DNA from: a virus
Virus record (IMG/VR): IMGVR_UViG_3300045974_000156
Location: 19,892 to 83,891 of that record
Reading direction: 5' to 3' (one strand)
Length of the DNA: 64,000 nt
The translations under genes and the position numbers were made by a program. Shown here piece after piece: positions 19,101 to 44,263 of the stretch (the first letter of the stretch is position 1; each line of letters starts with the position of its first letter). The notes beneath the pieces were generated by a model. It made no database searches, had not been told where the DNA came from, and worked only from the letters and a program-made list of their open reading frames with translations.

Positions 19101-22100
19101 TGGATTACAAATTCACTACCGTACAGTTCCTACTATTAGGTCAAAAAGAAGATAAGATATCCGCCCCGAAGGATAAATGCGACTGTCATATTTCAGTTAA
19201 TAGTGATAAATCAGAGTCCATAACAACCAACGTGGCTCCATTCTTCGTCGGAAATGGACCCCCAGCAGTCATATCAAAGCCTGCATTAAATAACGGAAGA
19301 ACACCCAATCTAAGCATTACACCATGGGCAGCAATACTACCGAGAGATTTTCTATTAGCCACAGTTCATGCCTCAGACGTTCCTCCTGCATCAGCATATG
19401 CCGCTAATGCCGCAGTAGCCGTAGCAGCAGCTACCGCAGCAAATGATGTTGCTGTCGCCGCAGCCGCAGCCGCAGCCGCAGCCCCTAGTGACGTAAACCT
19501 TGCAGCAATTGCTGTATCCACCGCTGCTGCCGCATCCAAGGCTGCAACGACTTCTGCCATAGCATCATCTGTAGCCACAGATGCAGCCGATCCTGCTGGT
19601 GCTGCAATGCGGGCTGCCACCAACGCTGCCGCAACTGCCGCAACTGCCGCCAGAACAGCAGCTAATGCAGCTACTGCTGCCGCTAATGCCGCCGCCGCCA
19701 TCGTGGCTGCCGCCGCCGCCTTAGAGGCTGTAGATCCTGGCGCTGCCTTACGAGCCGCAGAGGCTACTGCCGCCGCAGCCTCCGCATATGTACTTGACAC
19801 CATAGCTGCTGCAATTTCAGCCACCAGTGACGCAGCCATTGCAATCTCTAACGCCCGTAATGCCGCTGCAACTGCCGCTAATGCCGCCGCCGCCGCAGCC
19901 AACATAGCCACGATTGCTGCCACCTCGGCATCAAACGCATCAAACTCTTTAATCAATGCCGCCGCTGCAATGGTAGCTGCTGCCTTGGGTAATGCAAATC
20001 TCATTGCCGCAAACTCTGCTGCCCGAACTGCTGCAACCTCAACCTCAACCGCCGCAGTGGCTGCCAATACCAGAAGTCTCGCAGCAGCAAATGCATTAAC
20101 TGCCGCCGGGGCTGCTGAAGCCGCAGCTTCGATAGCCACCATAGCCATAAACGACGCTGCGGCTTCTCCTTATGATCAGGATCTAGCTAACGCTGCCGCA
20201 TCCGCTGCTAGTGCTGCTGCTAGTGCCACCGTCGTCGCCGCAACTGCCGCAGCACAAAATCATGCAGCCTTTGTAACTGCCATTATCCCTGCATCGAGCC
20301 GCGCAGACGCAGCCACTACAATTGCCAATAATGCCTCTAGTGCTTCAGATGCTGTTGCTTCCATAGCAGTAGCTTCTCCATTAAATATTCACATAGTCGC
20401 AGCCTCTAATGCAGTAAACGCCGCAGCGATTGCTGCATCCACTTACGCTTCTGACGCCGCAGATGATGCTGTTGCGATTACCAATGCTTCTCTGGCTGCC
20501 GATGCTGCCGAAATAGCAACTTCCGATGCTGCTAGCGTGACTACGCCAATCGCAACCGCTGGGTTTATTAATAGCCAAGCAGTCCTGAATGCTATATCTA
20601 CAGCCGCAGCCGCAGATCCTGCTGCTGTTATCGCTCATGCCTCCAGAGCCTCCACAGCCGCCGACATAGCTCTCGCCGCTGCCGCTGCCGCAACAACTGC
20701 TGCTGATGCCGCTGATGCTGCTGCAATTGCAACTGCCGCAGCCACGACACCAACTGCCGCTGCAACTGCCGCCGACGCTACAGCTACAGCCACCGCAACT
20801 GCCGCCGACGCTACAGCTACAGCCTCGGGTAATGCAGGACTTGTGGTTTTCACAACGGAAGACTCAAACCTCGTTACAACCGCAAAAACTTCTGCTGGGT
20901 ATGCAGACTCTGCCGCAACTGCTGCATTCCGAGCAGCAGATAGGGCTACTGCCACAGCCTTAGATCCTTCCGTTATTGCCGCAGCCAGAGCAACAACAGC
21001 CATTGCCGCAGCCGCAGCCGCTCCAGATGACCAGAATCTAGCTCATGCCGCAACTGTTGCTATTGCTAATGCAGCCGCAAACCCACCCAAGGGTATAGTA
21101 TTCCATAGTGATTGGACCGTCTTACCAGTCTGCGGTCCAATGCACGCCTTCTGGAAGATAACGACAGGCGCAGAGCCACCTGTCATAATACCTTCAGTCC
21201 AGAACCATGTAGTTATGGGATCCATTACTGCTTATAGAGGTGTCGATGTAGCTTATGCTGATCCTATTACTGATATAGGACCAAGCATGTCTGATACGAA
21301 GAAGGGTCCCACTTCTGGTTATGGTGGTCAAACTTACGACGGATCTACACCTTATGTCCCGGGTGAACAGCAATACCCTATATACATATATTATCCAAAG
21401 CTTGTACCCCTCCAAACACTGAGTTATCAATTACCATCACCCTCACCAAAGGGACCTCATGAGAGGATGATTGCAATCACAGGGTACAATCTAAACGGCG
21501 GCGGTTCCGGCTTTTATCCATCTACTACTAAAGATCCAGATCCTAAGACACACATCTTGCCTGGGCTCATGCCTTATACAAGAAATGTACTGAGCGGGAA
21601 TGGACCTACGATACCCTATACATACAATGATGTCCTTCAAGTAATTAATGGATCCGGGTCAACGATCTCTAAAACAAATCAAGTTGGAACCGGATGGGGA
21701 ACTTATATATTCGACGGTGACACTATTAATGAAGGTCCATCCGAAGCACCTCTCCCAGTTTTACAGGTGTACGCACCGACTAGGACCACATTCTATGGAT
21801 TTGTGATATCTCTACGGGGTTCGTTTATCTCAAATACAGAGAATGCTGGCGTTAATATGAATCGGGTGTCAGATGACCCTAATTATGTAACATCTCTGGA
21901 TAATTACGAAGTAGAAGTTAGACCTACTAGGGCTGCACAAAAAGGACCTATAGATCCACCAGATGTTGAAAGTGAACGTCTTTGGATGCCAGGTGGTCCG
22001 TGTAAAGAGAGAGATGTCAAAGGTCCTATAGATTATTGTGATTATGAATACGTACCTGCAAACATGTTAGTATCCTATGATGATCGCCTATTAACAGCTA

Positions 22101-22600
22101 AACCTTCGGATGCCTGCAAGTCATTACTTCGCAGTGCAAATAAGTACTCCGATTCCGAGTACTCTGCCAAACCAATGGACGAAGGTATCGGCGGTACATC
22201 ACTTTACGGTATAGATTCTTCTACAGATGAGTACACCGCACCTTCGGACGAATACGGAGCCCCGCAAGAAGGTGAACAAAAATATGATATAGGGGTACCT
22301 GTAGATGATTGTGGTGGTGGTGTTCAAGGTCCAAAGGGTCCTAGAAATATCGTAGAGTACCTCGGTGGAATGGAAGCAGAAGAACCAGGTATAAAGAGCA
22401 ATAACTACCAAGAAGAAGATCTATATCCAAGCGAAGAATCGGACGTAGATGTTAAGTGGGGTTATCGTGCTGTTAATGTTGGCGAGAGGGCGCGTCCGTT
22501 AGATTATTACCTCGAAGCTAACAAAATAGGACGGGATATACCTACCGACTCTGTAGAGGTCTTGGGGTGGGAAGATGCCGTTGTTATCAAGTCTCCATGA
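16187..22600 (+). CDS. Second giant mosaic fibre-like protein (FN3-like domains, acidic repeats, Ala-rich insert)
   Basis: This 2137-aa gene starts at ATG 16187 behind GGAG (16178-16181). The N-terminus (16187-17040) looks like three fibronectin-III/Ig-like domains, two with LSWxAP and GYxVxPSPAxPGS strands. Acidic repeats like those of the upstream giant gene follow (17060-18160). Next come two copies of the shared GD/AYRG beta-sandwich, at about 18187-18800 and 19235-21830. The second is split by a 560-residue alanine-rich insert. More acidic repeats (21860-22590) end the protein. It shares modules with the preceding gene and lies in the same direction, so both probably form the same or neighbouring virion appendages. 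The role as a fibre or adhesin is inferred; no enzymatic motif was seen. Confidence 0.85.
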   Translation: MTVVTSASASVSGTNITVSWSCPYYPYSWTISGSIYNSVPGGSRSYTFTGVGAGTYSFQVGPTPGGGIADTSTRATNSVTVFTPPSAPRTIVASLGTIDANGNYPINLSWLAPSSTGGSAITGYTVTPSPAAPGSTISITGTTAVVSKLARGQTYIFTVRAGNAYGTGLGANSNSIQDGIQTVPGASTGVVASTSGIGAGVTINLSWTAPVDTGGVAITGYNVAPSPAIPGSTTVVNLAAKTAVISNIPYSAPPTLYTNTFTVSASNIVGTGPDSDPSNSIYLLYGTLHNNGYLDYQTTSQDPFDSGNNLRPKLEVDTLTLTGPTVDKYAKSNNPFGEREEYVTPYDNYKGGFKLGNNTYIDDQLAVPEDACDGIKSLKVKQEEYSTPKDNLFDAAKIVNKEIQESPTTFDKVNAGLHVFSEQEDDLLSPLEYNDLKLKISVSFLEQMPEPQDGIEWEYISGLHYGIYRRNQEEYPHPDDACDCRYSIGAKAKGAEAPTLSDGCLTALPYNDKIKEYVSGPADGYIGGHHVMAEYIDSETQPILQDGNDAGFGYFAEQHDDNDTIFTDSETSFRYYGTTGFEKNLEGPLDKWANNISYVIGFKDDGPICYEDQKAGIIWGVNQEDYATASAEGTSEKIGSLVYGEELDYNSAWQDTKDPIQFWVPASQPWLASSGISSVNRTTVTLPPEMLKGDVLILVFIHYNSSIDAAGYTKLGTRQLLDWGDGAFSYADIYWKRATGLESPLPIEVNDVGTFAQIYAFRDCNPENPPIEQFQMGDGSTLSFTSSIDSTEPIYIGITSTLGDYGPLISVADPLYFPVSGVNLFNLGVGVNVEIWEGYQPQAGSILSGTSSPTGGGCVNALFNFIAIPGYWTNVSTAAIITTGEINEEKNVIAFDDYTFDYKSGHGGYVYNRALEETITLQDQPLFHDEMFLIDPYKYAEESDMCDVTPSDDSRAGKYVLVESDQGDVIDLDYKFTTVQFLLLGQKEDKISAPKDKCDCHISVNSDKSESITTNVAPFFVGNGPPAVISKPALNNGRTPNLSITPWAAILPRDFLLATVHASDVPPASAYAANAAVAVAAATAANDVAVAAAAAAAAAPSDVNLAAIAVSTAAAASKAATTSAIASSVATDAADPAGAAMRAATNAAATAATAARTAANAATAAANAAAAIVAAAAALEAVDPGAALRAAEATAAAASAYVLDTIAAAISATSDAAIAISNARNAAATAANAAAAAANIATIAATSASNASNSLINAAAAMVAAALGNANLIAANSAARTAATSTSTAAVAANTRSLAAANALTAAGAAEAAASIATIAINDAAASPYDQDLANAAASAASAAASATVVAATAAAQNHAAFVTAIIPASSRADAATTIANNASSASDAVASIAVASPLNIHIVAASNAVNAAAIAASTYASDAADDAVAITNASLAADAAEIATSDAASVTTPIATAGFINSQAVLNAISTAAAADPAAVIAHASRASTAADIALAAAAAATTAADAADAAAIATAAATTPTAAATAADATATATATAADATATASGNAGLVVFTTEDSNLVTTAKTSAGYADSAATAAFRAADRATATALDPSVIAAARATTAIAAAAAAPDDQNLAHAATVAIANAAANPPKGIVFHSDWTVLPVCGPMHAFWKITTGAEPPVIIPSVQNHVVMGSITAYRGVDVAYADPITDIGPSMSDTKKGPTSGYGGQTYDGSTPYVPGEQQYPIYIYYPKLVPLQTLSYQLPSPSPKGPHERMIAITGYNLNGGGSGFYPSTTKDPDPKTHILPGLMPYTRNVLSGNGPTIPYTYNDVLQVINGSGSTISKTNQVGTGWGTYIFDGDTINEGPSEAPLPVLQVYAPTRTTFYGFVISLRGSFISNTENAGVNMNRVSDDPNYVTSLDNYEVEVRPTRAAQKGPIDPPDVESERLWMPGGPCKERDVKGPIDYCDYEYVPANMLVSYDDRLLTAKPSDACKSLLRSANKYSDSEYSAKPMDEGIGGTSLYGIDSSTDEYTAPSDEYGAPQEGEQKYDIGVPVDDCGGGVQGPKGPRNIVEYLGGMEAEEPGIKSNNYQEEDLYPSEESDVDVKWGYRAVNVGERARPLDYYLEANKIGRDIPTDSVEVLGWEDAVVIKSP
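19388..21080 (+). repeat. Alanine-rich, about 560-residue insert inside a beta-sandwich domain
   Basis: Roughly half of the residues are alanine, with Ser, Thr, Asn, Asp, Val and Ile filling the rest. A longer internal periodicity is suggested by recurring breakpoints such as PSDVNLA, PYDQDLA, PDDQNLA, DPSVIAA and DPAAVIA, each followed by a run rich in AAxxAA. Lambda Stf-type side-tail fibres have comparable Ala/Ser/Thr/Lys-rich segments, but this one almost lacks Lys. A helical or coiled stalk is the natural inference. Domain sequence resumes directly on the far side (GIVFHSDWTVLPVCG then a FWK-type strand and ITAYRGVD). The long open frames on the other strand here are composition artefacts. 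Confidence 0.85.
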
Positions 22601-27608: not shown

Positions 27609-27887
27609 ATGAAAAAGACAGTCTATACTTTACGTCCCGGTATTTCGATTCTTGCCTATAAGGGTCGCCGCGTAATGCCTGGCGAGTGGATCGATGACAA
27701 TACTCTAGTCAATAATCCTTCTTTCATGCCAATGGTTGCCGACTTTCCGGAACCTCAGATTAGGGAGCAGATGCCTGTCCCGGTAGCCCCGCTACTAACT
27801 GAACAGATGCCCGTCAGCAAGCCCACAGTGGTTCAGGAAGCCCCCGTAGAGAAGCTTGAGAAGCCTCACAAGGGTAAGAGGGGCTAG
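27609..27887 (+). CDS. Hypothetical 92-aa protein, Pro/Val-rich C-terminus
   Basis: Starts at ATG 27609 behind GGAG (27596-27599) and a good promoter. The first half (YTLRPGISILAYKGRRVMPGEW) looks beta-rich. The second half is an extended Pro/Val/Glu-rich tail with a repeated EQMPV element, ending in a basic KPHKGKRG. It is the first gene of a small operon whose next member begins two bases after its stop. Similar N-terminus-plus-Pro-rich-tail proteins occur near neck genes (compare 48176-48514), so a virion role is plausible but not shown. Confidence 0.65.
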   Translation: MKKTVYTLRPGISILAYKGRRVMPGEWIDDNTLVNNPSFMPMVADFPEPQIREQMPVPVAPLLTEQMPVSKPTVVQEAPVEKLEKPHKGKRG

Positions 27888-32061: not shown

Positions 32062-32574
32062 ATGCCTGCAATTAATCTCATCATACCCACCAAAGATTCG
32101 GTTGAGGGGTATGAAGAAGAAATAGAGACACATACAGACGGTCTCGCGGCAGCAGGGTTCTACCCACAAATAGGTAGTGTTAATAATTTACTTGCTGGAA
32201 TGGAACGAGATACCTCCGGTAACCTGACATTCAAGGATCAGGTTGCCGGAGGTCCTTATACCCTTACTCAATTACTAGCATCCGGTGGAAGCGGGACTAC
32301 TAACGTAGTTTCGACTTTCTCTATTTCACTAAATCCCCCTACAAGCGAGATATTTGGAACTGTCACGGGGCTTGCTGGCGCACCTGTGAGGGTCGCTGGC
32401 TTTTCTGTAATGGAGCAAGGTGTTTCCGTTACCACTGGTTTAGTTTATGATGTACAGGTAATAAGTTTGACCGCTGATGGTTTTAACTATAGATTATCTA
32501 TCGGACGAGATGAATGGTGGCCCGGACCCGGAACCATGACTCTTAATGTCCAGTACCTCTGGAGCGCCACATGA
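32062..32574 (+). CDS. Hypothetical structural protein, 170 aa
   Basis: Starts at ATG 32062 behind CCGGAG. The N-terminal half (VEGYEEEIETHTDGLAAAG and NLLAGMERDTSGNLTFKDQ) resembles the attachment part of phage fibre proteins. The C-terminal half is beta-rich with Ser/Thr strands. The stop overlaps the ATG of the 1984-aa repeat protein (ATGA), so the two are translationally coupled and probably act together, perhaps as base and shaft of one appendage. That pairing is an inference. Confidence 0.65.
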   Translation: MPAINLIIPTKDSVEGYEEEIETHTDGLAAAGFYPQIGSVNNLLAGMERDTSGNLTFKDQVAGGPYTLTQLLASGGSGTTNVVSTFSISLNPPTSEIFGTVTGLAGAPVRVAGFSVMEQGVSVTTGLVYDVQVISLTADGFNYRLSIGRDEWWPGPGTMTLNVQYLWSAT

Positions 32575-35500
32575 GTATTATTCAGGATCCGGCAGGAGCA
32601 GGAGCAGCGAACGTAGTAGACGCTGAGTCTCCTGACTTCACAAGTAAAAAGGCATTAGTTGTCGCCATTAGTGCCGATTATAGCAAGTCAAACCAAACAG
32701 TTTCTAACTCCCTGACCGGAACAGCCAATATATCCATAAGTACGGCTGCCGCCAGTACTTGTGGTATTCAGGTGGCAGGAACATGGACAGGCACCCTTCT
32801 ATTTGAGTCTACTCTAGACGGGTCCACATGGGTCTCTGTGTTGGGCGCATCGGTACCTGGAAATATAACATCAACAAGTACAACCTCTAATGGCGTGTGG
32901 TTAGTAGCCACTTCAGGTATAAATGCCTTAAGGGTCAGGGGTAGCACAGTCGGATCAGGCACAGCTATTGTAACGCTATCAGCATCACTAGTTGCACAAG
33001 AGGTGTCGATTACATCCACTACTGGGTTAACAGACGCACAGCTTAGGGCTTCTCCCATATCAGTAACTTCATCATTACCGAGTGGAGCCTCCACGGCAGC
33101 GTTACAGAATTCGATCAATACTACCCTGACCGAGATATCCGGTCAGTTACCTACCACTCTGGGTGCAAAGACAACCGCAAATTCAGTAGCTGTTAATGTA
33201 GCTTCGGATCAGACAGTGGTGGTATCTGCATCTTCATTACCTCTGCCGACAGGCGCTGCACAAGACTCTACTTTGACAAGTGGAAGCCAGAAAACACAAG
33301 TAACAGCACTCCCATCAATCCCGGCAGGCACAAATACCATAGGTGCCGTTAACCAAGGTACTGGAGGGGTTAGTGCGTGGAAGATAGATGGCTCAGGATT
33401 TACACAGCCTGTTTCAGCCGCATCTTTGCCCCTACCCAGCGGCGCAGCCACTAGTGCGCTACAAACGAGCGGTAATAGCACCCTAAGCACCATATCAGGG
33501 CAGTTACCAGCATCACTCGGGGCAAAGACTACCTCGGCGTCGGTTGCCGTTAATATAGCATCTGATCAGACCGTACCGGTTTCCGGAACGGTTGTGGCTA
33601 CTCAGTCCACAGCAGCAAATCTAAATGCAACCGTAGTAGGCGCAGGCATAGGCGGAACTCCCGCTGGTGGTGTATTATCTGTTCAGGGCGTAGCTAGCAT
33701 GACAGCCCTGAAGGTCGATGGGTCGGGTGTTACCCAACCCGTATCTGCCACCGCCCTACCTCTCCCTACCGGTGCCTCGACAGCAGCACTCCAGACAACT
33801 GGAAACTCCACACTGACAGCTATCTCAGGGCAGATTCCTTCAACTCTGGGGGCTAAGACAACAGCAGCGTCCCTGGCAGTAAATATAGCGTCTGATCAGA
33901 CAGTTCCTGTATCGGTAGCTACATTCCCGTTACCAACCGGAGCAGCTACTTCGGCAAATCAGACCGGAGGCGGTCAGAAGACACAAATAGTAGATGCATC
34001 CGGAAATGTACAACCGGCAGGAGATACCGTAGCTAGATCTTCGTTTCAAAAGATAACAGACGGATTCAACGGTCCTGTGGCTGTTAAGGCTGCATCTACC
34101 GCACCAGCCGCAACAGACCCCTCCCTGGTAGTTTCTATTTCACCTAATACACCGACCCTACCAGTATCGGCGTCAGCCCTACCGCTACCAACCGGCGCTG
34201 CAACAGCAGTACTACAGTCAACTATCTCCGGTCAGCTACCAGGAACTCTAGGATCCAAGATAACCTCTGCATCGTTGGCGGTTAACATTGCCAGCGATCA
34301 GACCGTTCCAGTTAGTGCGTCTGCTCTACCCCTACCAAGCGGAGCAGCTACTTCAGCAAAACAGCCTGCACTTGGAGTAGCAGGCACCCCGTCAGCAGAT
34401 GTTTTGACTATTCAGGGTAACGCCTCAGGAACGCCGATCCCAGTTTCCGGATCAGTAGCCCTAACCGCCGGATCCAGCACTATCGGTAAAGTAGACCAAG
34501 GCGTAGCAGGAGCCTCGGCTTGGAAAGTTGATGGATCTGCTGTAACTCAGCCTATCTCGGCAGCCTCCTTGCCGTTGCCGACAGGTGCAGCAACATCCGC
34601 AAATCTAACGACACTGGGCGCTCAGACTACAAAAATTAACGATGGGACAAACACTGTTACCGTAAAAGCAGCCAGTACTGCTGCCGTAGCAACAGACACC
34701 GCGATAGTCGTAGCCATCAGTCCGAATAATCCGATCACTACCTCTGGAACTTCCACTGTTACACAGTCTACCGCTGCCAACCTGAACGCAACCGTGACAC
34801 AGGGTCCCGCTGGCGCAGCGGCTTGGAAGGTAGATGGGTCTGCTGTTACTCAGCCTATCTCTGGAACCATTACAGCAAACCAAGGTTCCGCTAGTGTCAC
34901 AGCTTGGAAGGTTGACGGATCTGCTGTAACTCAGCCGGTTTCTGGAACCATAACAGCATCCCAGGCAACTGCTGGAAATCTAAACGCAACCGTAGCCCAA
35001 GGCGCAGCGGGGGCTACAGCTTGGAAAGTAGACGGTTCTGCCGTCACTCAGCCGGTCAGCGCCTCCGCGCTTCCGTTACCTGCCGGTGCAGCCACCAGCG
35101 CATTACAGACAACCGGTAATACATCCCTATCAGCCATAGCAGGGCAGCTACCCTCATCCTTGGGTGCAAAGACTACCGCCAATTCAATGGCTGTTAATAT
35201 CGCATCCGATCAGACTGTACCGGTCAGCGCCCTGATCCTACCTCTTCCATCTGGTGCCTCGACCGCTGCAAAACAGCCAGCACTGGGCGTAGCCGGTACC
35301 CCATCTACAGATGTCCTGACAATTCAGGGTATCACCAGCATGACCGCTCTAAAAGTCGATGGTTCCGGAATTACACAGCCTGTTAGTGGGACATTCTGGC
35401 AGACAACCCAGCCAGTATCGGCAGCCTCGTTACCTCTGCCTATTGGCGCAGCTACATCGGCAAACTTAACTACTATTGGAAGCCAGACTACTAAGATAAA

Positions 35501-38500
35501 CGACGGAACCAACACGGCAGCAGTTAAGGCAGCCTCTACCGCCCCGGTAGCTGCTGATCCTTCACTAGTTGTAGCTATCTCTCCAAATACAGCAACCCTA
35601 CCTGTATCTGCCGCCTCCCTGCCTCTTCCTACCGGAGCCGCAACCTCCGCGCTTCAGACAACAGGAAACTCGTCGCTATCTGCAATATCAGGTCAGTTAC
35701 CAGCCTCGCTTGGAGCCAAGACCACCGCAGCATCTATGGCTGTAAATATTGCCTCAGATCAGAACGTACCTGTGACCGGCACCATAACAGCGGCGCAGGC
35801 AACTGCTGGAAATCTAAACGCAACCGTTGTTCAGGGTGCAGCCGGTGCGTCAGCATGGAAAGTAGACGGGTCGGCTGTTACTCAGCCCGTGAGCGCCGCA
35901 GCACTCCCACTCCCTACCGGCGCAGCCACTTCCGCAAATCAGACTACCTTGGGAAGCCAGACTAGTAAGATTAACGACGGCACATATACAGCAACAATTA
36001 AGACTGCCGGTACCGCAGCAGTTACTGGCGACACCGCTTTGGTTGTCGCTCTATCTCCCAACTCATCAACCCCGAACACCCTAGATCTAAATAACACAGG
36101 AACATTAGGATCCCTTAATGCCACTATAGTATTTAATTGTTCTGGAATGTCCACAGCTACCTTTAGTGTAACAGGGACTTGGGTAGGAACAACCCAGTTC
36201 CAAGGTAGTGTCGATGGTACAAACTGGTTTGCGGCAGACGCATGGAATATGTCTACCGGATTGTTTATAACTAGTATAACCGCTAACGGTAACTTTCTAG
36301 TCGGCATTGCAGGTCTCAAGCAGTTCCGACTAATAATGTCATCTTATACCTCAGGAACAGCCTCTATTGCTTATAATATAAGCGTAAGAGAAAGCGGACA
36401 GCAGACCGGAAACCTGATCGTAGACGCAAATAACAATGGTCCCGTGACCGTGAAGCAAGCCAATACGGCACCTGTAGCTACGGACATGGCTTTGGTCGTA
36501 GCTATCTCGCCAAACTCTCCAACTCTGGCTACTTCCGTATCTTCTCTACCTCTTCCAACCGGGGCATCTACTGCTGCTCTCCAGACTACCGGAAACGCGA
36601 CCCTGACAACCATCTCTGGACAGCTACCGGCTACCCTCGGTGCGAAGACCGTAGCAAACTCAACGTCGGTCAACATAGCTTCTGACCAGACTGTTCCAGT
36701 CAGCGCCGCAGCCCTGCCCCTCCCGAGTGGTGCAGCCACAAGTGCATTACAGACTAGCGGCAACTCAACGCTGACCACAATATCCGGACAGCTTCCTACA
36801 ACCCTAGGAACAAAGACAACTGCAAACTCCGTTGCGGTTAATATCGCATCAGACCAAATAGTACCGGTATCTGGAACCATAACAGCCGCTCAGTCTACTG
36901 CTGCAAACCTTGCCGCAACCGTTACTCAGGGTCCTGCCGGGGCTAGCGCCTGGAAAGTAGATGGAAGCGCAGTTACACAACCCATTAGTGCTACCGCGCT
37001 ACCCCTACCGACAGGGGCAGCAACATCCGCCAACTTGACTACAGTAGGGTCACAGACAACTAAAATAAATGATGGGACTAATACAGCCACAGTTAAGGCT
37101 GCATCGACATCCCCTGTAATCACAGATACATCCTTGGTTGTAGCCATTTCTCCCAATACAGCAACCCTGCCTATCTCAGCAGCATCATTACCTTTACCAT
37201 CAGGCGCAGCAACAGCCGCAAATCTAACAACAATCGGTAGCCAGACATCAAAAATAAATGACGGTACAAATACTGCGGCAGTAAAAGCTGCCAGTACCGC
37301 AGCAGTAGCAGCAGATCCTGCTCTGGTCGTAGCAATTAGCCCGAATAATACACTCAACATAAATGCCTCTGCTTTGCCTCTACCATCTGGCGCATCTACT
37401 GCGGCTCTACAGACTAGTGGTAACTCAACCCTAACCACTATATCTAGCCAATTACCAACTACTCTAGGCACAAAAACCACTGCTAACTCCATAGCAATTA
37501 ATATTGCGTCAGATCAGACAGTCCCTGTTAGCGCCATAGCCCTGCCTCTACCTACTGGTGCTGCAACATCCGCAAATCTAACAACCCTTGGTGCCCAGAC
37601 AACAAAAATTAATGACGGGACCAATACTGCGGCTGTTAAGGCAGCCTCGACAGCAGCCCTGGCTACCGACTCTGCCCTTGTGGTAGCAATATCTCCAAAC
37701 TCTCCATTTACATTACCGTCCGGTGCCTCAACTTCAGCAAACCAGACTACCTTGGGATCGCAGACCACTAAGCTAAATGACGGTACAAATACCGTTACAG
37801 TAAAGGCAGCCTCAACCGCCGCACTAGCTACTGATACAGCCTTGGTCGTGGCGATGTCTCCAAATTCTCCATTTGCTTTGCCCTCCGGAGCCTCGACATC
37901 CAGTAATCAGATTACTCTCGGGGCACAGACTACAACCATAAACGATGGCACCAATACCGCTGCTGTTACGGCAGCCTCTACCGCCCCTACTGCAACAGAT
38001 GCTGCGTTGGTAGTAGCTATATCTCCGAATTCACATATAAATGGAATCCTGAAGCCTTTATATGGTGCATCAGGTCAGGCTATGACCATAACCCTAGCAA
38101 GCCTAACGTCAACATCCGCCCGAGCAAGTACCGCTGTAGATAATACAACAAACTTATTCGAGGATGTACTGTTCTTTGTAAAGACTACATCAGCAGCAGC
38201 CGCCACCAGCGCCACAGGGTATGTAAATATTTACGGCTATGGCTCTGTGGATGGCGGTACAACATACCCAGAAGGCATTACAGGGGCAGACGCAGCAGTT
38301 ACCCTATCAAATCCTCCAAACTTGGTATTACTAGCCCAGATAACGCTAAACGCAAACAGCAAGACAGCTACCGCAGGACCGTTCTCCTTCTGTCGCCAGT
38401 ATGGCATCGACAGACTCCCGGCTAGGTGGGGTCTTGTATTTGTAAATCTAAGTGGTGCAACACTTAACGCAACTGCCGGTAATCATGCTATTACATGGCA

Positions 38501-38525
38501 GGGCATAAACGGACAACTAATATAA
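32571..38525 (+). CDS. 1984-aa repeat-rich fibre-like structural protein
   Basis: After a short N-terminus, a beta-sandwich domain (about residues 40-140, with VAGTWTGTLLFESTLDGSTW) precedes a long array of LPLPTGAATSALQ-type repeats. A second copy of the same sandwich lies near 36080-36410 (VTGTWVGTTQFQGSVDGTNW). The C-terminal 160 residues (38040-38525) form a separate beta-rich domain. LPLPTGA-type repeats are common in phage virion proteins. No hydrolase motif is visible. Overlaps with both neighbouring genes (ATGA at the start, TAATG at the end) indicate a coupled structural operon. A long shaft carrying terminal domains is the inferred shape. Confidence 0.82.
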   Translation: MSIIQDPAGAGAANVVDAESPDFTSKKALVVAISADYSKSNQTVSNSLTGTANISISTAAASTCGIQVAGTWTGTLLFESTLDGSTWVSVLGASVPGNITSTSTTSNGVWLVATSGINALRVRGSTVGSGTAIVTLSASLVAQEVSITSTTGLTDAQLRASPISVTSSLPSGASTAALQNSINTTLTEISGQLPTTLGAKTTANSVAVNVASDQTVVVSASSLPLPTGAAQDSTLTSGSQKTQVTALPSIPAGTNTIGAVNQGTGGVSAWKIDGSGFTQPVSAASLPLPSGAATSALQTSGNSTLSTISGQLPASLGAKTTSASVAVNIASDQTVPVSGTVVATQSTAANLNATVVGAGIGGTPAGGVLSVQGVASMTALKVDGSGVTQPVSATALPLPTGASTAALQTTGNSTLTAISGQIPSTLGAKTTAASLAVNIASDQTVPVSVATFPLPTGAATSANQTGGGQKTQIVDASGNVQPAGDTVARSSFQKITDGFNGPVAVKAASTAPAATDPSLVVSISPNTPTLPVSASALPLPTGAATAVLQSTISGQLPGTLGSKITSASLAVNIASDQTVPVSASALPLPSGAATSAKQPALGVAGTPSADVLTIQGNASGTPIPVSGSVALTAGSSTIGKVDQGVAGASAWKVDGSAVTQPISAASLPLPTGAATSANLTTLGAQTTKINDGTNTVTVKAASTAAVATDTAIVVAISPNNPITTSGTSTVTQSTAANLNATVTQGPAGAAAWKVDGSAVTQPISGTITANQGSASVTAWKVDGSAVTQPVSGTITASQATAGNLNATVAQGAAGATAWKVDGSAVTQPVSASALPLPAGAATSALQTTGNTSLSAIAGQLPSSLGAKTTANSMAVNIASDQTVPVSALILPLPSGASTAAKQPALGVAGTPSTDVLTIQGITSMTALKVDGSGITQPVSGTFWQTTQPVSAASLPLPIGAATSANLTTIGSQTTKINDGTNTAAVKAASTAPVAADPSLVVAISPNTATLPVSAASLPLPTGAATSALQTTGNSSLSAISGQLPASLGAKTTAASMAVNIASDQNVPVTGTITAAQATAGNLNATVVQGAAGASAWKVDGSAVTQPVSAAALPLPTGAATSANQTTLGSQTSKINDGTYTATIKTAGTAAVTGDTALVVALSPNSSTPNTLDLNNTGTLGSLNATIVFNCSGMSTATFSVTGTWVGTTQFQGSVDGTNWFAADAWNMSTGLFITSITANGNFLVGIAGLKQFRLIMSSYTSGTASIAYNISVRESGQQTGNLIVDANNNGPVTVKQANTAPVATDMALVVAISPNSPTLATSVSSLPLPTGASTAALQTTGNATLTTISGQLPATLGAKTVANSTSVNIASDQTVPVSAAALPLPSGAATSALQTSGNSTLTTISGQLPTTLGTKTTANSVAVNIASDQIVPVSGTITAAQSTAANLAATVTQGPAGASAWKVDGSAVTQPISATALPLPTGAATSANLTTVGSQTTKINDGTNTATVKAASTSPVITDTSLVVAISPNTATLPISAASLPLPSGAATAANLTTIGSQTSKINDGTNTAAVKAASTAAVAADPALVVAISPNNTLNINASALPLPSGASTAALQTSGNSTLTTISSQLPTTLGTKTTANSIAINIASDQTVPVSAIALPLPTGAATSANLTTLGAQTTKINDGTNTAAVKAASTAALATDSALVVAISPNSPFTLPSGASTSANQTTLGSQTTKLNDGTNTVTVKAASTAALATDTALVVAMSPNSPFALPSGASTSSNQITLGAQTTTINDGTNTAAVTAASTAPTATDAALVVAISPNSHINGILKPLYGASGQAMTITLASLTSTSARASTAVDNTTNLFEDVLFFVKTTSAAAATSATGYVNIYGYGSVDGGTTYPEGITGADAAVTLSNPPNLVLLAQITLNANSKTATAGPFSFCRQYGIDRLPARWGLVFVNLSGATLNATAGNHAITWQGINGQLI
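33061..38040 (+). repeat. Three interchangeable protein repeat modules
   Basis: Three module types alternate: LPLPTGAATSALQTTGNS continuing to LGAKTTANSVAVNIASDQTVPVS (about 20 copies of the LPLP-GA core); QTTKINDGTNTATVKAAST continuing to DTALVVAISPN; and QGPAGASAWKVDGSAVTQPV. The modules occur in varied order and number. Codons differ between copies, so most duplications are old, although some copies are close to identical as protein. Confidence 0.85.
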
Positions 38526-39175
38526 TGTCAGCCTTCATAAATGCAGCAAACGCTTATATAAGCGCCACTTATGTCACTACTGCCACCCAACCCTTGACCA
38601 TCATGTGTAGGTTTAATCTACCTAGCATTGTGGTTAGGTACCGAGATATCATATCATTGGATCCAAACATAACTCTGCAAACATTCACTGACGGGATCAC
38701 TCTAAATTTCGGAACCGGTAACTCAGATAATCTAGGACCACTGCTGGCTATCAATACTTGGTATCACGCAGCATATGTATGCGTACCTACATCGACAACA
38801 TCTAGACAGATATATGGGTACCTGAACGGGGACTTGGTGGTAAACGTAACCGACACAGCGTCTACATTTGCAGCAACTACAAGGCTAGTTGTAGGTAATA
38901 ATAGAGTATCTACAAACGCTGGTCTACAGGGGCAAATTAGAGATGTTCGCGTTTGGAACCGAGCCCTTACAGCAACAAATATACTGGAAGAAAAGAATTC
39001 AGTAGTCCCTTTTAATGACGAGGGTCTAATTTCATTTCTTCCCTTGGACACTAGTCTAGTGAGGGATCAAGGTAGTTCTCGGTTTGTATGGACTAATACC
39101 GCAGGAGTAACTTTGCAGCATGGTGGTATGCGAGGCTCTTATCCTTCCCGCAATCCCCGTACATTAAGATTTTAG
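38525..39175 (+). CDS. LamG/concanavalin-A-like structural protein
   Basis: The protein is 216 aa from ATG 38525, which overlaps the previous TAA (TAATG); an upstream in-frame start at 38495 would lie inside the preceding gene. A LamG-like fold is suggested by SAFINAANAYISATYVTTA, NTWYHAAYVC, GYLNGDLVV and the hallmark LQGQIRDVRVWNRALT. Such domains bind sugars or proteins in phage fibres. It follows the long repeat protein in a coupled operon and may be its tip or receptor-binding partner. The ligand is unknown. Confidence 0.75.
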   Translation: MSAFINAANAYISATYVTTATQPLTIMCRFNLPSIVVRYRDIISLDPNITLQTFTDGITLNFGTGNSDNLGPLLAINTWYHAAYVCVPTSTTSRQIYGYLNGDLVVNVTDTASTFAATTRLVVGNNRVSTNAGLQGQIRDVRVWNRALTATNILEEKNSVVPFNDEGLISFLPLDTSLVRDQGSSRFVWTNTAGVTLQHGGMRGSYPSRNPRTLRF

Positions 39176-40237: not shown

Positions 40238-40246
40238 GAGGTGTTT

Positions 40247-40552
40247 ATGGACTGGTTATGGCCAATCAAAACAGGTAAGACGTTCTTCGATTACTGGTCC
40301 CTTATTCATTTTTTCTTCTGGGCGGTGGTGGGATCTACGTTCGCCCACACAGCAATGGGGCGCACTAAGGTCTTCGGCATATGTATGGCACTAGCCTACT
40401 TGTGGGAATTTATGGAGCGTTATCTGGAAGTTAAGTACCCTAATGTGTTTCTGACTCCAGAGAGTTGGGTAAACTCTTATGTCAGTGATCCTCTGATGTG
40501 TGTAATTGGACTCCTGGTAGCTTGGTACGGGTTTGATAACTGGAGACCGTAG
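40247..40552 (+). CDS. Small membrane protein (VanZ/DUF2585-like pattern)
   Basis: The start is taken at ATG 40247, five bases after AGAGG; a GTG at 40241 would overlap that site. The 101-aa protein has about three hydrophobic helices: SLIHFFFWAVVGSTFAH, KVFGICMALAYLWEFM and DPLMCVIGLLVAWYGF. The arrangement of a His in the first helix, WEFMER in the second and an SWVNSYVSDPL loop resembles VanZ/DUF2585-like phage and bacterial proteins. It directly precedes the receiver gene. A holin or membrane-anchor role is possible; neither is shown. Confidence 0.65.
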   Translation: MDWLWPIKTGKTFFDYWSLIHFFFWAVVGSTFAHTAMGRTKVFGICMALAYLWEFMERYLEVKYPNVFLTPESWVNSYVSDPLMCVIGLLVAWYGFDNWRP

Positions 40553-40553
40553 T

Positions 40554-40907
40554 ATGACCCACCGCATATTAGTGGTAGACGACGATCTAGTTAATAGGAA
40601 GATACTAAAACATCTCGTTGAGCGTAGAGGTCACAGGGTAGACCTAGCCATCGACGGTCTTAGAGCCTTGACTATGGCTAACGTGGAAAACTACTCACTA
40701 ATACTTTTAGATATCAGTATGCCTGACATGGATGGTATAGAGGTCGCAACTATTCTACGAGAGACAGGGCTAAAAATCCCGATCATTGCTGTCACAGCCA
40801 CCTCTAATCTAAAATCCCAATGTTTAGAGGTGGGCATGAACGGGTTTATAGATAAACCTATAAATACTGTTGAATTAGATGAGATTTTAAATAAATGGTG
40901 TTCTTAA
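40554..40907 (+). CDS. Stand-alone CheY-like response-regulator receiver domain
   Basis: The protein is 117 aa from ATG 40554, eight bases after GGAG and one base after the previous stop. All receiver-domain signature residues are present: acidic pocket D9-D10 (ILVVDDD), phospho-acceptor D53 (LILLDISMPDMDG), T81 (IIAVTATS) and K101 (GFIDKP). The pattern is closest to receiver domains of hybrid histidine kinases (DDDxVNR, MDGIEV, GMNGFIDKPI). There is no output domain. Such a gene inside a virion operon is unusual. It may intercept host phosphorelay signalling or act on a protein partner. The family assignment is firm; the role is unknown. Confidence 0.9.
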   Translation: MTHRILVVDDDLVNRKILKHLVERRGHRVDLAIDGLRALTMANVENYSLILLDISMPDMDGIEVATILRETGLKIPIIAVTATSNLKSQCLEVGMNGFIDKPINTVELDEILNKWCS

Positions 40908-40933: not shown

Positions 40934-41428
40934 ATGACAACCAAGATAGGATTCTCCACCCCTAACTGGTTTAACCCAGTATCTTGGGTGATCAGAAAGA
41001 TAACGAAATCCAAGTGCAGCCACGCCTGGTTCCTGTATCACGATCAGGATTGGGACGCCGATATGGTCATGGAGGCTCACGAGTTAGGTTTTCGCCTTAT
41101 ACCCTATGAGCATTTCAAGATGAACAACATAGTGGTAGGTGTATTTACACCGCAGCACTCGATAGATGAAGGCATGAAGAGAGTTGCCCTAGAGTATCTT
41201 GGTACTCACTATAATTATCTAGGGTTATTTGGCATGACTGTGGTAAAGTTAGGTCAGTGGCTGAAGCGAAAATGGAATAACCCTTATAGGACATCCGGTA
41301 GCGTTTTTTGTTCCGAGGCTGTATGCTTGGCTATGCAGTGGTCTAAGGGTTATGAATATTTCGCAGAAGACTCAGAGTCCATGGATCCTGAAACATTGAT
41401 GGAGCTAATGGAGAAAGGTGCCGTCTAG
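40934..41428 (+). CDS. Permuted NlpC/P60-type (YiiX/C92-like) cysteine amidase
   Basis: The 164-aa protein shows the circularly permuted papain-like order. Histidine H30 comes first in KCSHAWFLYH, then E47 in MVMEAHELG, and the nucleophile C126 in SVFCSEAVCLAMQW near the end. This matches YiiX/YebB-like C92 enzymes, which hydrolyse amide or lipid bonds. No signal peptide is visible. It follows the membrane protein and receiver and may serve in lysis, envelope penetration or lipid modification. Homologues occur in phage structural regions. The substrate cannot be told from sequence. Confidence 0.75.
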   Translation: MTTKIGFSTPNWFNPVSWVIRKITKSKCSHAWFLYHDQDWDADMVMEAHELGFRLIPYEHFKMNNIVVGVFTPQHSIDEGMKRVALEYLGTHYNYLGLFGMTVVKLGQWLKRKWNNPYRTSGSVFCSEAVCLAMQWSKGYEYFAEDSESMDPETLMELMEKGAV

Positions 41429-42085
41429 ATGTCTGATCGTATCCAGACAGGTCAATCCGAAACCGTCGAGTTCTTGGCGGTAGATAATAATGCTGCGTTC
41501 ATAACAGGCGCAACAGATATAGTCATAATGGTTAGGCGCGAGTCAGACCAGTTTATACTGGATTGGTCAGACGATACTTTTAAGCATTCAGGGTGGACTA
41601 GCCCAAACTGGACACTGACCGAAGTAGATAGCGTTAACTGCCCTGGACAGTACAGACTAACCAAAACAGGGCATCTGAATGGATTTAACCCGAGTTCTAT
41701 TACCAATCTGACGCCGAATGATGACTATTATTTTGTAGTTTTTCAAAAACCAGGTGTATCTACCCGAGCCAGTAATCTACCAGCCACAGGCGAACTCAAG
41801 GTTGGTCAATATCTAGATATGTTGACACCGTTAGCTATAGCCAGTGCAATATGGAATGCTCAGGAAAACAGCCATCAGCTAGCGGGAAGCCTAGGGCGAG
41901 CACTTTCTATGGTTAGGAAGTCAAGGACAAATAGAGAAATTGTCTCAGTAGGTAAACATTCCAATTTCGTTCTCTACGACGACGATTCTATTACCCCTAT
42001 ACTGGTATCTGATGTAACTGGTCCCAGCGGGGAGGCTATCAGTATCCCAAGTGGAACACCGTCTAATAGAACCAAAGGAGCCTAA
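41429..42085 (+). CDS. Hypothetical structural protein, 218 aa
   Basis: The ATG directly follows the previous TAG. The N-terminal 120 residues (TGQSETVEFLAVDNNAAF, then GQYRLTKTGHLNG) look like a beta-sandwich of the kind found at the base of phage fibres. The middle is helical (AIASAIWNAQENSHQLAGS). The C-terminus ends IPSGTPSNRTKGA. No enzymatic residues are recognised. It lies in a tight run with the amidase and the next structural gene. Confidence 0.6.
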   Translation: MSDRIQTGQSETVEFLAVDNNAAFITGATDIVIMVRRESDQFILDWSDDTFKHSGWTSPNWTLTEVDSVNCPGQYRLTKTGHLNGFNPSSITNLTPNDDYYFVVFQKPGVSTRASNLPATGELKVGQYLDMLTPLAIASAIWNAQENSHQLAGSLGRALSMVRKSRTNREIVSVGKHSNFVLYDDDSITPILVSDVTGPSGEAISIPSGTPSNRTKGA

Positions 42086-42775: not shown

Positions 42776-43534
42776 ATGCAGAATGAAAGAATGACCAAGG
42801 AGGAGATTCAGACTTGGTGTCTTCATAAACTTGGTGCGCCTTTTACCAAAGTTGAGATTGGTCAAGAAAATCTAGATTATTGTGTAGAAGAGGCTTGTCG
42901 TTGGTTTAGTGCCAAAAAAGGTTATAAAGAGACAATAACAGTTGCTGTTGGTGGCGGTGTAGCCCTATATGATCTGCCAGATCAGGTAGATACAGTTCTG
43001 GATTGCACCTTTTCATCAAGCACACTCGATTATTCTTATCTTGTGGACCCAATGAGCCTAATCGGTGGGCAGATCCCTACTGCAATGTTTGGTTACGGTG
43101 GTAGTGGTAATATGGGCGGAATGGGTGGTGGGGATTCTGGTGGGTTCTTATCTTCTTATGCTCAATTTACACAATATCTAGGCATGGCGAAGAGAATCCT
43201 CAATGCAGAATCTGATTGGGTTCAGGTAAATAGGCAACTCCTGGTTCTCCCACCCCCAAGACAGTCAGGTCTTATCGTGATGGAGTACAAGACACACGCC
43301 TTCACAGTAGAGAAGCTTAATGAACGTGATCATGACCTAGTTAAGAGAAAGGTCCTGTGCCTAGTAAAAGAATTCGTAGGGCGTGTACGCTCTAAGTTTG
43401 GAAATTATCCTACAGCACAAGGGCAGGAAGCTGTAGATGGTGGTGCGTTATTACAAGAATCCGAAAAAGAATTCCAGCTACTCGAAGAAGAGATTTTCAA
43501 CTCAGGCTTCCCAATGGGAATTCTCGTCGGCTAA
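42776..43534 (+). CDS. Neck/head-completion protein (T4 gp13-like)
   Basis: The 252-aa protein starts at ATG 42776 behind CCGGAG. The N-terminus (MTKEEIQTWCLHKLGAPFTK, then NLDYCVEEACRWFSAKKG) matches the conserved opening of phage neck proteins found ahead of gp14- and gp15-like genes. A Gly/Met-rich loop lies near residues 105-125 (GGSGNMGGMGGGDSGG). A strand pair LLVLPPPRQSGLIVMEY and a helical C-terminus follow. Gene order (this gene, 44272, 47381, sheath, tube) parallels T4 13-14-15-18-19, which supports the call. Confidence 0.65.
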   Translation: MQNERMTKEEIQTWCLHKLGAPFTKVEIGQENLDYCVEEACRWFSAKKGYKETITVAVGGGVALYDLPDQVDTVLDCTFSSSTLDYSYLVDPMSLIGGQIPTAMFGYGGSGNMGGMGGGDSGGFLSSYAQFTQYLGMAKRILNAESDWVQVNRQLLVLPPPRQSGLIVMEYKTHAFTVEKLNERDHDLVKRKVLCLVKEFVGRVRSKFGNYPTAQGQEAVDGGALLQESEKEFQLLEEEIFNSGFPMGILVG

Positions 43535-43570: not shown

Positions 43571-44263
43571 ATGCCAAGATCAAAAGAACAACTAAAGGCG
43601 TATCAGAGAGAATATGCCGAGAAAAACAGAGAGAAGATCCGCAAGTACAGCCGAGAGTGGTTAGCTAAGAAGCGTGCTGAGAATCCTGAAAAATATAAAA
43701 AACGCAGTAAGGAGTACAGAGAGGCTAATGCAGAAAAAATCAGGGAGTATGAGAGGCTCAGGTCTATAAAAAGACGGGACTCTGACCCTGAGGGTCATAG
43801 AACTTATATGAGAAAATACAAGGAGGAGAATCGAGAAAAACTAAACGAGCAGAGTAGGCTTTGGGCTGCCGAACAGCGGGCTACCAATCCGGAATTTAAG
43901 TCTAGAGAGTTAGCCAACAGTAGGAAATTTGAGAAAAGGAATTTCATGAAGCGACGAGAGACTAAACTTTTAGAGAAATACGGTATAACTAATGATGATT
44001 ATGACCGTATGCTAGAACTACAGGACGGTAAGTGCGCCATATGTGGGACAACAGAGCCAGGAGCTAAAAAGAAATACTTTTGCGTCGATCATTGCCATAC
44101 CACTAAAAAAGTAAGACAGCTCTTATGTACAACTTGTAATGTTGGATTATCTAGATTCTACGATAACCCAGACTTTCTTCGTGAGGCTGCTTTATATTTA
44201 GAGCGACATAAGACTATCTCAGATTCTGAACAAATTACCCATAAACCTTCGCTGGTAGGGTAG
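43571..44263 (+). CDS. Endonuclease VII-type HNH endonuclease
   Basis: The 230-aa protein has a long Lys/Arg/Glu-rich helical N-terminus (residues 5-130) with repeated motifs such as YREANAEKIREYERL, probably a DNA-binding coiled region. The C-terminal domain (137-213) is the recombination endonuclease VII family: C155-x2-C158 (CAICG), D173-H174-x-H176 (VDHCH) and C186-x2-C189-N190 (CTTCN). All catalytic and zinc residues look intact. It interrupts the neck genes between gp13- and gp14-like members, the usual behaviour of a homing endonuclease. No ribosome-binding site precedes it; it may be translated from a leaderless RNA. Confidence 0.88.
   Translation: MPRSKEQLKAYQREYAEKNREKIRKYSREWLAKKRAENPEKYKKRSKEYREANAEKIREYERLRSIKRRDSDPEGHRTYMRKYKEENREKLNEQSRLWAAEQRATNPEFKSRELANSRKFEKRNFMKRRETKLLEKYGITNDDYDRMLELQDGKCAICGTTEPGAKKKYFCVDHCHTTKKVRQLLCTTCNVGLSRFYDNPDFLREAALYLERHKTISDSEQITHKPSLVG

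What the first reader, a model, noticed from the sequence alone, without database searches (positions are those of the whole stretch)
40554..40907. Free-standing CheY-like receiver domain in a virion operon
All phosphorylation-site residues are intact and there is no output domain. Phages rarely carry two-component parts, least of all among tail and fibre genes. It could sequester phosphate from a host hybrid kinase, tune host chemotaxis or lysis timing, or control the adjacent membrane protein or amidase.
Basis: partly seen in the sequence, partly recalled or inferred. Interest (0 to 1): 0.8.

Follow-up and report, generated by a model that had tools for sequence, protein, structure and literature searches.

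The report
Orphan phage receiver beside membrane protein
A large tailed phage carries an intact single-domain bacterial signalling switch (a CheY-like receiver) directly behind its only small membrane protein. Comparable pairs turn up next to cell-lysis genes in unrelated phages, which suggests phages use host phosphorylation signals to control a late, membrane-linked step such as lysis.

Summary
Window 40554-40907 encodes a complete 117-aa receiver (PF00072, 96 bits) with D9/D10, D53, T81 and K101 intact and no output domain. It lies in a tight co-directional late operon: fibre genes, a ~103-aa multi-TM protein, the receiver (1-nt gap), a C92 permuted papain-like amidase, then neck and tail genes. 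Codon usage is phage-like and no close cellular homologue was found, so it is not a recent host fragment. By sequence, tree and fold it is a hybrid-kinase-type receiver. The phage record holds no other receiver, histidine-kinase ATPase or Hpt domain.

The claim that such genes are least expected among fibre genes does not hold. Alteromonas phages V22 and A5 carry CheY-like genes in fibre modules (published as 'auxiliary metabolic genes'), and V22 has a C92 amidase there too. Further phage receivers found here sit in late, lysis or packaging clusters: T7-like R8W and H4/4 (holin–1-TM–REC–TM–TerS), siphovirus R9Y1 (TM+coil–REC–lysozyme) and environmental phages with REC–PG hydrolase–spanin. One group fuses REC to two TM segments. 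These receivers are polyphyletic.

Best reading: a host-phosphorylated orphan receiver that controls a membrane or lysis step through its neighbour. The gene is shown; the pairing is inferred; function is untested.

The parts
40554..40907 (+). Single-domain receiver (CheY-like, hybrid-kinase class), 117 aa; D9/D10, D53, T81, K101
   Evidence: Pfam PF00072 96 bits; PDB sequence and fold matches to hybrid-kinase receivers; AlphaFold pLDDT 96; codon usage phage-like
40241..40552 (+). 103-aa multi-TM membrane protein (or 101 aa from ATG 40247), 1 nt upstream of the receiver; orphan, no homologue found; holin-like size
   Evidence: Hydropathy: 2 clear and 1 marginal TM segments; three long helices in a low-confidence model; the only non-structural small membrane protein in the record by inspection; no Pfam match over cut-off and no PHROG match
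40934..41428 (+). Permuted papain-like amidase, YaeF/YiiX C92 type, 164 aa; His (SHAW) and Cys (FCSE) conserved
   Evidence: PHROG 1128, shared with V22 gp28; 49% identical to the G001 protein, which matches PF05708 below its cut-off; alignment with V22 gp28
38495..39175 (+). LamG/ConA-like lectin fibre protein upstream
   Evidence: Pfam PF13385 54.8 bits
39185..40237 (+). Fibre-region protein of 350 aa, directly upstream of the membrane protein
   Evidence: Position; no family match
41429..42085 (+). Probable fibre or virion protein downstream (abuts the amidase gene)
   Evidence: Position and sequence character; no family match
42776..43534 (+). Head-tail adaptor (neck), first gene shared with relative G002 after the receiver block
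   Evidence: PHROG 211 Ad2; 56% identical to L006, where it follows the small gene homologous to 27609-27887 directly

Best explanation
A bona fide phage gene for an orphan single-domain receiver of the hybrid-kinase class, expressed late with the virion genes. SHOWN: intact active site, phage-like codon usage, tight operon position, a multi-TM protein 1 nt upstream, a C92 amidase downstream, and no histidine-kinase ATPase or Hpt domain in the record. INFERRED: the host (hybrid kinase/Hpt relay or acetyl phosphate) phosphorylates D53, and the phospho-state switches binding to the neighbouring membrane protein. This tunes a late membrane-linked step, most likely lysis timing. The phage would thus read the host's physiological state through borrowed two-component chemistry.
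For: Window: the membrane gene and receiver are 1 nt apart, and that gene is the only small non-structural membrane protein in 83.9 kb. Convergent examples, found by receiver similarity and not by context: V22/A5 families, TM/coil-REC-Rz spanin-2-TM holin-like; R9Y1, fibre-TM+coil-REC-GH108 lysozyme; L177, fibre-TM+coil-REC-Hydrolase_2-spanin; L183/L184, TM+coil-REC-Amidase_3 behind fibre genes; T7-like R8W and H4/4, holin-1-TM-REC-2-TM-TerS; L147 and L189, TM+coil-REC-TerS/TerL; L140/L142, tail operons of distant relatives of this phage, TM+coil-REC-tail gene-tape measure. L185/L186/L190 fuse REC to two TM segments, a Rosetta-stone link. A strict 'small N-TM + charged tail' gene is upstream of 4 of 12 receiver clusters against 18/1435 background ORFs (p about 1e-5; 3e-4 with sister clusters merged). 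HATPase_c and Hpt absent over cut-off in 9 records.
Against: The window's membrane protein is multi-TM with no coiled coil, so it is not a homologue of the TM+coil partners, and it has no known relatives. The strict neighbour class was defined after seeing examples, and with a loose TM criterion the enrichment is not significant (6/12, p 0.09). The window's receiver is flanked by fibre genes and an amidase, not by a recognised holin, endolysin or spanin. The phage receivers are polyphyletic, so transfer of function between them is inference. The nearest relative G002 lacks it, so it is accessory. No biochemical data exist.
Confidence: 0.42

Rival explanations
1. Phosphoryl sink or decoy: the late-expressed hybrid-type receiver draws phosphate from a host hybrid kinase or Hpt relay (for example a Gac/Rcs-like stress pathway), blunting the host response during infection. 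The adjacent membrane protein and amidase are unrelated passengers.
For: Single domain without output; hybrid-kinase-class receiver by sequence, tree and fold; no phage kinase. A phage protein that targets host histidine kinases is published (PIT4, PMC10714779), though it is not a receiver.
Against: A sink would be expected among early genes, but this lies in the virion operon. It does not explain the recurrent membrane-protein neighbours or the REC-TM-TM fusions.
Confidence: 0.25
2. Host-behaviour auxiliary gene (the published reading for V22 and A5): a CheY-like signalling protein that modulates host motility or chemotaxis or general signalling, carried in a mobile host-recognition module.
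For: Co-location with fibre genes in Alteromonas phages of three morphotypes (PMC10579305, PMC7289586); the block lies in a fibre region absent from relative G002.
Against: The receiver groups with hybrid-kinase receivers rather than with CheY (tree holds no CheY). In V22, A5, R9Y1, R8W and L177 the immediate neighbours are lysis genes, which the 'AMG' reading leaves unexplained.
Confidence: 0.15
3. Virion component or assembly factor: a folded domain used structurally or as a fibre-assembly partner, with phosphorylation irrelevant.
For: Operon position between fibre genes; L140/L142 receivers sit between tube and tape-measure genes.
Against: All phospho-transfer residues are kept in the window protein, which a structural role would not require. 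Small cytoplasmic fold with no fibre features.
Confidence: 0.08
4. Neutral passenger recently captured from a host hybrid kinase.
For: Absent from the nearest syntenic relative; no orthologue found in phages.
Against: Codon usage is indistinguishable from the phage's (simulation fraction 0.38); catalytic residues intact; best cellular match 42%; complete, well-spaced ORF with a Shine-Dalgarno sequence.
Confidence: 0.1

Closest known systems
CheY-like gp30 of Alteromonas phage V22 (MN877442) and gp11 of A5 (OP481051), published as class II AMG in a host-recognition module
   Same: Free-standing receiver downstream of fibre genes, with a small membrane-associated protein directly upstream; V22 also has a C92 permuted papain-like amidase of the same PHROG (1128) in the cluster
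   Different: Only 24% identical to the window's receiver; V22/A5 have ~30 extra C-terminal residues and Ser instead of Thr; spanin and holin-like genes follow; different receiver clade
[quoted passage not shown]
   Same: Free-standing receiver (153 aa, no DNA-binding domain seen) right behind a small TM protein in the late region after the long tail fibre
   Different: Lies between class II holin and TerS in a T7-type cassette; closer to the R9Y1/L184 receivers (42-43% to L184) than to the window's; no amidase next door
Receivers of hybrid histidine kinases (Sln1, GacS D1, RcsC, PA1611)
   Same: Closest by sequence, fold and tree; N in the DDDxxN motif and the GMNGFIDKPI motif
   Different: The phage protein has no kinase core and is a separate 117-aa gene
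Single-domain response regulators CheY, DivK, Spo0F
   Same: Stand-alone receiver without output domain, acting by protein-protein contact or phosphotransfer
   Different: Lower sequence similarity than to hybrid-kinase receivers; no partner kinase in the phage
cRec (cyclic-phosphate-processing receivers of jumbo phages, PMC7824862)
   Same: Receiver-like fold in large phages
   Different: The window protein is a canonical PF00072 member with no NAD/ADP-ribose genes beside it; cRec proteins give only weak fold matches

Membership tests
Response-regulator receiver domain (PF00072) | Profile match over the curated cut-off along the full domain | tested here: met
   96.1 bits against cut-off 30.2, positions 1-110 of 111
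Response-regulator receiver domain (PF00072) | Acid pair, phospho-Asp, Thr/Ser, Lys | tested here: met
   D9/D10, D53, T81, K101 aligned with E. coli CheY; D10, D53, K101 invariant in A1
Response-regulator receiver domain (PF00072) | Phosphorylation at the conserved Asp | not testable with these tools
   Needs in vitro or BeF3 assay
Hybrid-histidine-kinase receiver (as part of a kinase) | Receiver class by sequence, fold and tree | tested here: met
   Top PDB hits SLN1, PA1611, ShkA, RcsC; Foldseek top hits Sln1, GacS; tree clade 92/90
Hybrid-histidine-kinase receiver (as part of a kinase) | HATPase/HisKA core in the same protein or genome | tested here: not met
   117-aa ORF; no HATPase_c or Hpt in the record; HisKA not searched
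CheY (chemotaxis) | Closest to CheY rather than to other receivers | tested here: not met
   CheY hits score about 19 bits below the best hybrid-kinase receivers
CheY (chemotaxis) | FliM/CheZ/CheA binding | not testable with these tools
   Binding assay needed
Alteromonas-phage CheY-like (V22 gp30/A5 gp11) family | Orthologous sequence with the C-terminal extension | tested here: not met
   24% identity, no extension, separate clade
Phage 'small membrane protein + receiver' late module (proposed here) | TM protein immediately upstream of a free-standing receiver in a late, lysis or virion cluster | tested here: met
   40241-40552 with 2-3 TM, 1 nt before the receiver, in the virion operon
Phage 'small membrane protein + receiver' late module (proposed here) | Partner is N-terminal TM plus charged or coiled tail | tested here: not met
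   Window partner is multi-TM, tail not charged
Phage 'small membrane protein + receiver' late module (proposed here) | Recognised holin, endolysin or spanin next door | tested here: inconclusive
   C92 amidase adjacent; membrane protein is holin-sized but unclassified
cRec of jumbo phages | Divergent receiver outside canonical PF00072, next to NAD/ADPr-processing genes | tested here: not met
   Canonical PF00072 is the only Pfam hit; cRec proteins rank far down in the fold search; neighbours are fibre, membrane and amidase genes
Permuted papain-like C92 (neighbour gene) | His-Cys order and family profile | tested here: inconclusive
   PHROG 1128 with V22 gp28 and His and Cys conserved, but the window protein itself gave no Pfam match at E 0.001 and its 49% homologue matches PF05708 only below the cut-off

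The most novel reading that the evidence does not exclude
Tailed phages of unrelated families have repeatedly recruited free-standing receivers and paired them with small membrane proteins in their late or lysis cassettes. This would be a phosphorylation-gated control of lysis (or another membrane event) that reads host kinases, and the window's gene is a further, independently acquired example built on a hybrid-kinase receiver and a multi-TM partner.
Probability: 0.33. Interest if true: 0.82.

Novelty: new variant of a known kind. Interest (0 to 1): 0.6.

Why it matters
How phages without T4-type or N4-type sensors decide when to lyse is open. A receiver wired to a membrane protein would let a phage sense host physiology through the host's own histidine kinases or acetyl phosphate, a control layer not described in the papers found here. 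It also recasts published 'CheY-like AMG' and 'PhoB' annotations in Alteromonas phages as probable lysis-module parts. That can be tested at once in cultured phages: V22, A5, R9Y1, R8W, H4/4.

Tried and rejected
Single-protein scans of viral contigs with the receiver, the membrane protein, the sheath and the capsid found no relatives. Most 'phage' records hit by tblastn are unannotated, probably host-contaminated contigs (Listeria LM, S.Kent and similar) and were not counted as phage receivers. The 'Receiver domain' of N4 gp63 is a pinholin region, not a PF00072 domain. cRec was considered and rejected. Promoter and terminator scans were at the chance level, and repeats gave nothing meaningful. 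An own binomial test miscounted clusters (7/13); the corrected loose test is 6/12, p 0.09, not significant. The membrane-protein model is low confidence (pLDDT 61) and was not fold-searched. The tree of ~110-residue domains resolves few deep forks. No published phage receiver linked to lysis was found in the searched library.

Full report
OBSERVATION. The window is bases 19892-83891 of an 83,891-base linear IMG/VR record. At 40554-40907 (+) lies an ATG ORF of 117 codons with a GGAG eight bases upstream. It matches PF00072 at 96 bits across the whole domain, leaving no room for an output domain. D9/D10, D53, T81 and K101 align with CheY's catalytic residues. AlphaFold predicts a complete receiver fold (pLDDT 96). 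It is the only receiver in the record.

WHAT THE PHAGE IS. A contractile-tailed phage with a gp23-type capsid, a terminase ~36% identical to that of Vibrio phages such as SIO-2 and VA-RY-4, sheath, tube, gpV-like and wedge proteins, and very large fibre or adhesin genes. The closest relative found, G002 (99.4 kb, L006), is syntenic from capsid to tail, mostly at 40-70% identity. It joins the gene homologous to 27609-27887 directly to the neck gene, so the ~15-kb fibre block containing the receiver is absent there, and G002 has no receiver anywhere in its record. The receiver is therefore an accessory gene in a variable fibre block.

IMMEDIATE SURROUNDINGS. Upstream by 1 nt is a 103-aa protein with two clear and one marginal TM segment and no homologue in Pfam, PHROGs, 50,697 phage records or the viral contigs at the sensitivity used. 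It is the only small non-structural membrane protein in the record. Downstream by 26 nt is a permuted papain-like protein of the same PHROG (1128) as V22 gp28, with conserved His and Cys. The close spacing of co-directional genes argues for one late operon.

NOT A RECENT HOST FRAGMENT. Codon usage equals that of the phage's other genes (observed log-likelihood within simulation, fraction 0.38). The best cellular match among 84,980 genomes was 42% over 98 residues (this scan requires a shared 8-residue stretch). Sequence search, Foldseek and a tree all place the protein with receivers of hybrid histidine kinases.

RECEIVERS IN OTHER PHAGES. Literature: V22 (myovirus), A5 (schitovirus) and P24 (siphovirus) share a host-recognition module with a CheY-like gene, called a class II AMG; V22 has a permuted papain-like amidase in it (PMC10579305, PMC7289586). 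P24 was not inspected here. Reading the V22 and A5 records, the receiver sits between a protein with hydrophobic N-terminus plus coil and an Rz-like spanin, followed by a 2-TM holin-like gene and, in A5, an annotated endolysin. The family recurs in other viral contigs at 46-68% identity with the same order. A second receiver clade (R9Y1, L177, L178, L180, L181, L183, L184) sits behind a one-TM plus charged-tail protein and before GH108, Hydrolase_2 or Amidase_3 cell-wall hydrolases, mostly downstream of fibre genes. In T7-like R8W and H4/4 the order is long tail fibre, class II holin, one-TM protein, receiver, two-TM protein, TerS, TerL; the receiver is annotated as a DNA-binding PhoB although no DNA-binding domain is seen in its 153 residues. 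L147 and L189 have TM+coil, receiver, then packaging genes. L140 and L142, 160-kb phages whose tail proteins are mostly 30-39% identical to the window's, carry TM+coil and receiver just before a tail gene and the tape measure. L185, L186 and L190 encode a receiver fused to two C-terminal TM segments.

HOW STRONG IS THE PATTERN? These receivers were found by receiver similarity alone. Under a strict definition (80-150 aa, single N-terminal TM, charged tail) such genes are 18 of 1435 ORFs in the same viral loci but lie immediately upstream of 4 of 12 receiver clusters (p about 1e-5; 3e-4 if two sister clusters are merged). The definition was framed after seeing cases, and a loose 'any TM' criterion is not significant (6/12, p 0.09). 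Several hits without a TM partner come from short contigs or contigs that look chromosomal. The phage receivers are polyphyletic in the best tree (9 label changes; a single origin is not formally excluded), so the arrangement looks convergent. The window's case fits the broad pattern (membrane protein plus receiver in a late operon) but not the strict one.

NO KINASE. None of nine phage records examined has an HATPase_c or Hpt domain over the cut-off (two sub-threshold HATPase matches were not followed), and each of those records has a single PF00072 domain. HisKA was not searched, and several records are fragments. The receiver probably depends on host kinases or small phosphodonors.

MECHANISM. 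Most likely the host sets D53's phosphorylation and the phospho-state changes contact with the co-encoded membrane protein, tuning a late membrane event, most plausibly lysis (0.42). Phosphate sink for a host hybrid kinase: 0.25. Host-behaviour AMG: 0.15. Neutral passenger: 0.10. Virion part: 0.08.

NOVELTY. Free-standing receivers in phage fibre modules are already known. What is new is a hybrid-kinase-class receiver in this phage type, with a multi-TM partner and C92 amidase, and the recurring link of phage receivers to membrane proteins and lysis cassettes, which the papers found do not mention.

Noticed in passing
L185:7986-8672; L186:7545-8237; L190:7986-8687: Phage receivers fused to two C-terminal transmembrane segments (228-233 aa), in contigs of 123, 166 and 40 kb; sequence alone suggests membrane-anchored receivers.
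   Followed up: partly
L193:4995-5456 (R8W gp48), L194:3998-4459 (H4/4 gp44): Annotated as DNA-binding PhoB, but the protein is a 153-aa free-standing receiver with no DNA-binding domain seen, between a class II holin / 1-TM protein and TerS.
   Followed up: yes
window 68-16063 and 16187-22600: Giant proteins of 5331 and 2137 aa between prohead and capsid genes, absent from that place in G002; no Pfam match except one fn3 domain in the second.
   Followed up: partly
L005:13509-16606: Three tandem ~340-aa paralogues with repeated CFDGxxIWxxN motifs (propeller-like repeats), probably receptor-binding variants.
   Followed up: no
window 32571-38525: 1984-aa protein built of many degenerate repeats (PLPTGAATSA / KVDGSAVTQPVS), with long antisense open frames produced by the repeats.
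   Followed up: no
window 43571-44263: Endonuclease VII-like HNH gene inside the neck operon, conserved at 52% in G002 (L006:10750-11232).
   Followed up: partly
L003:1486-1944 (G001, 179 kb): A second large phage sharing the C92 amidase (49%) also has one free-standing receiver, far away on the contig, tail-to-tail with a TM + coiled-coil gene.
   Followed up: partly
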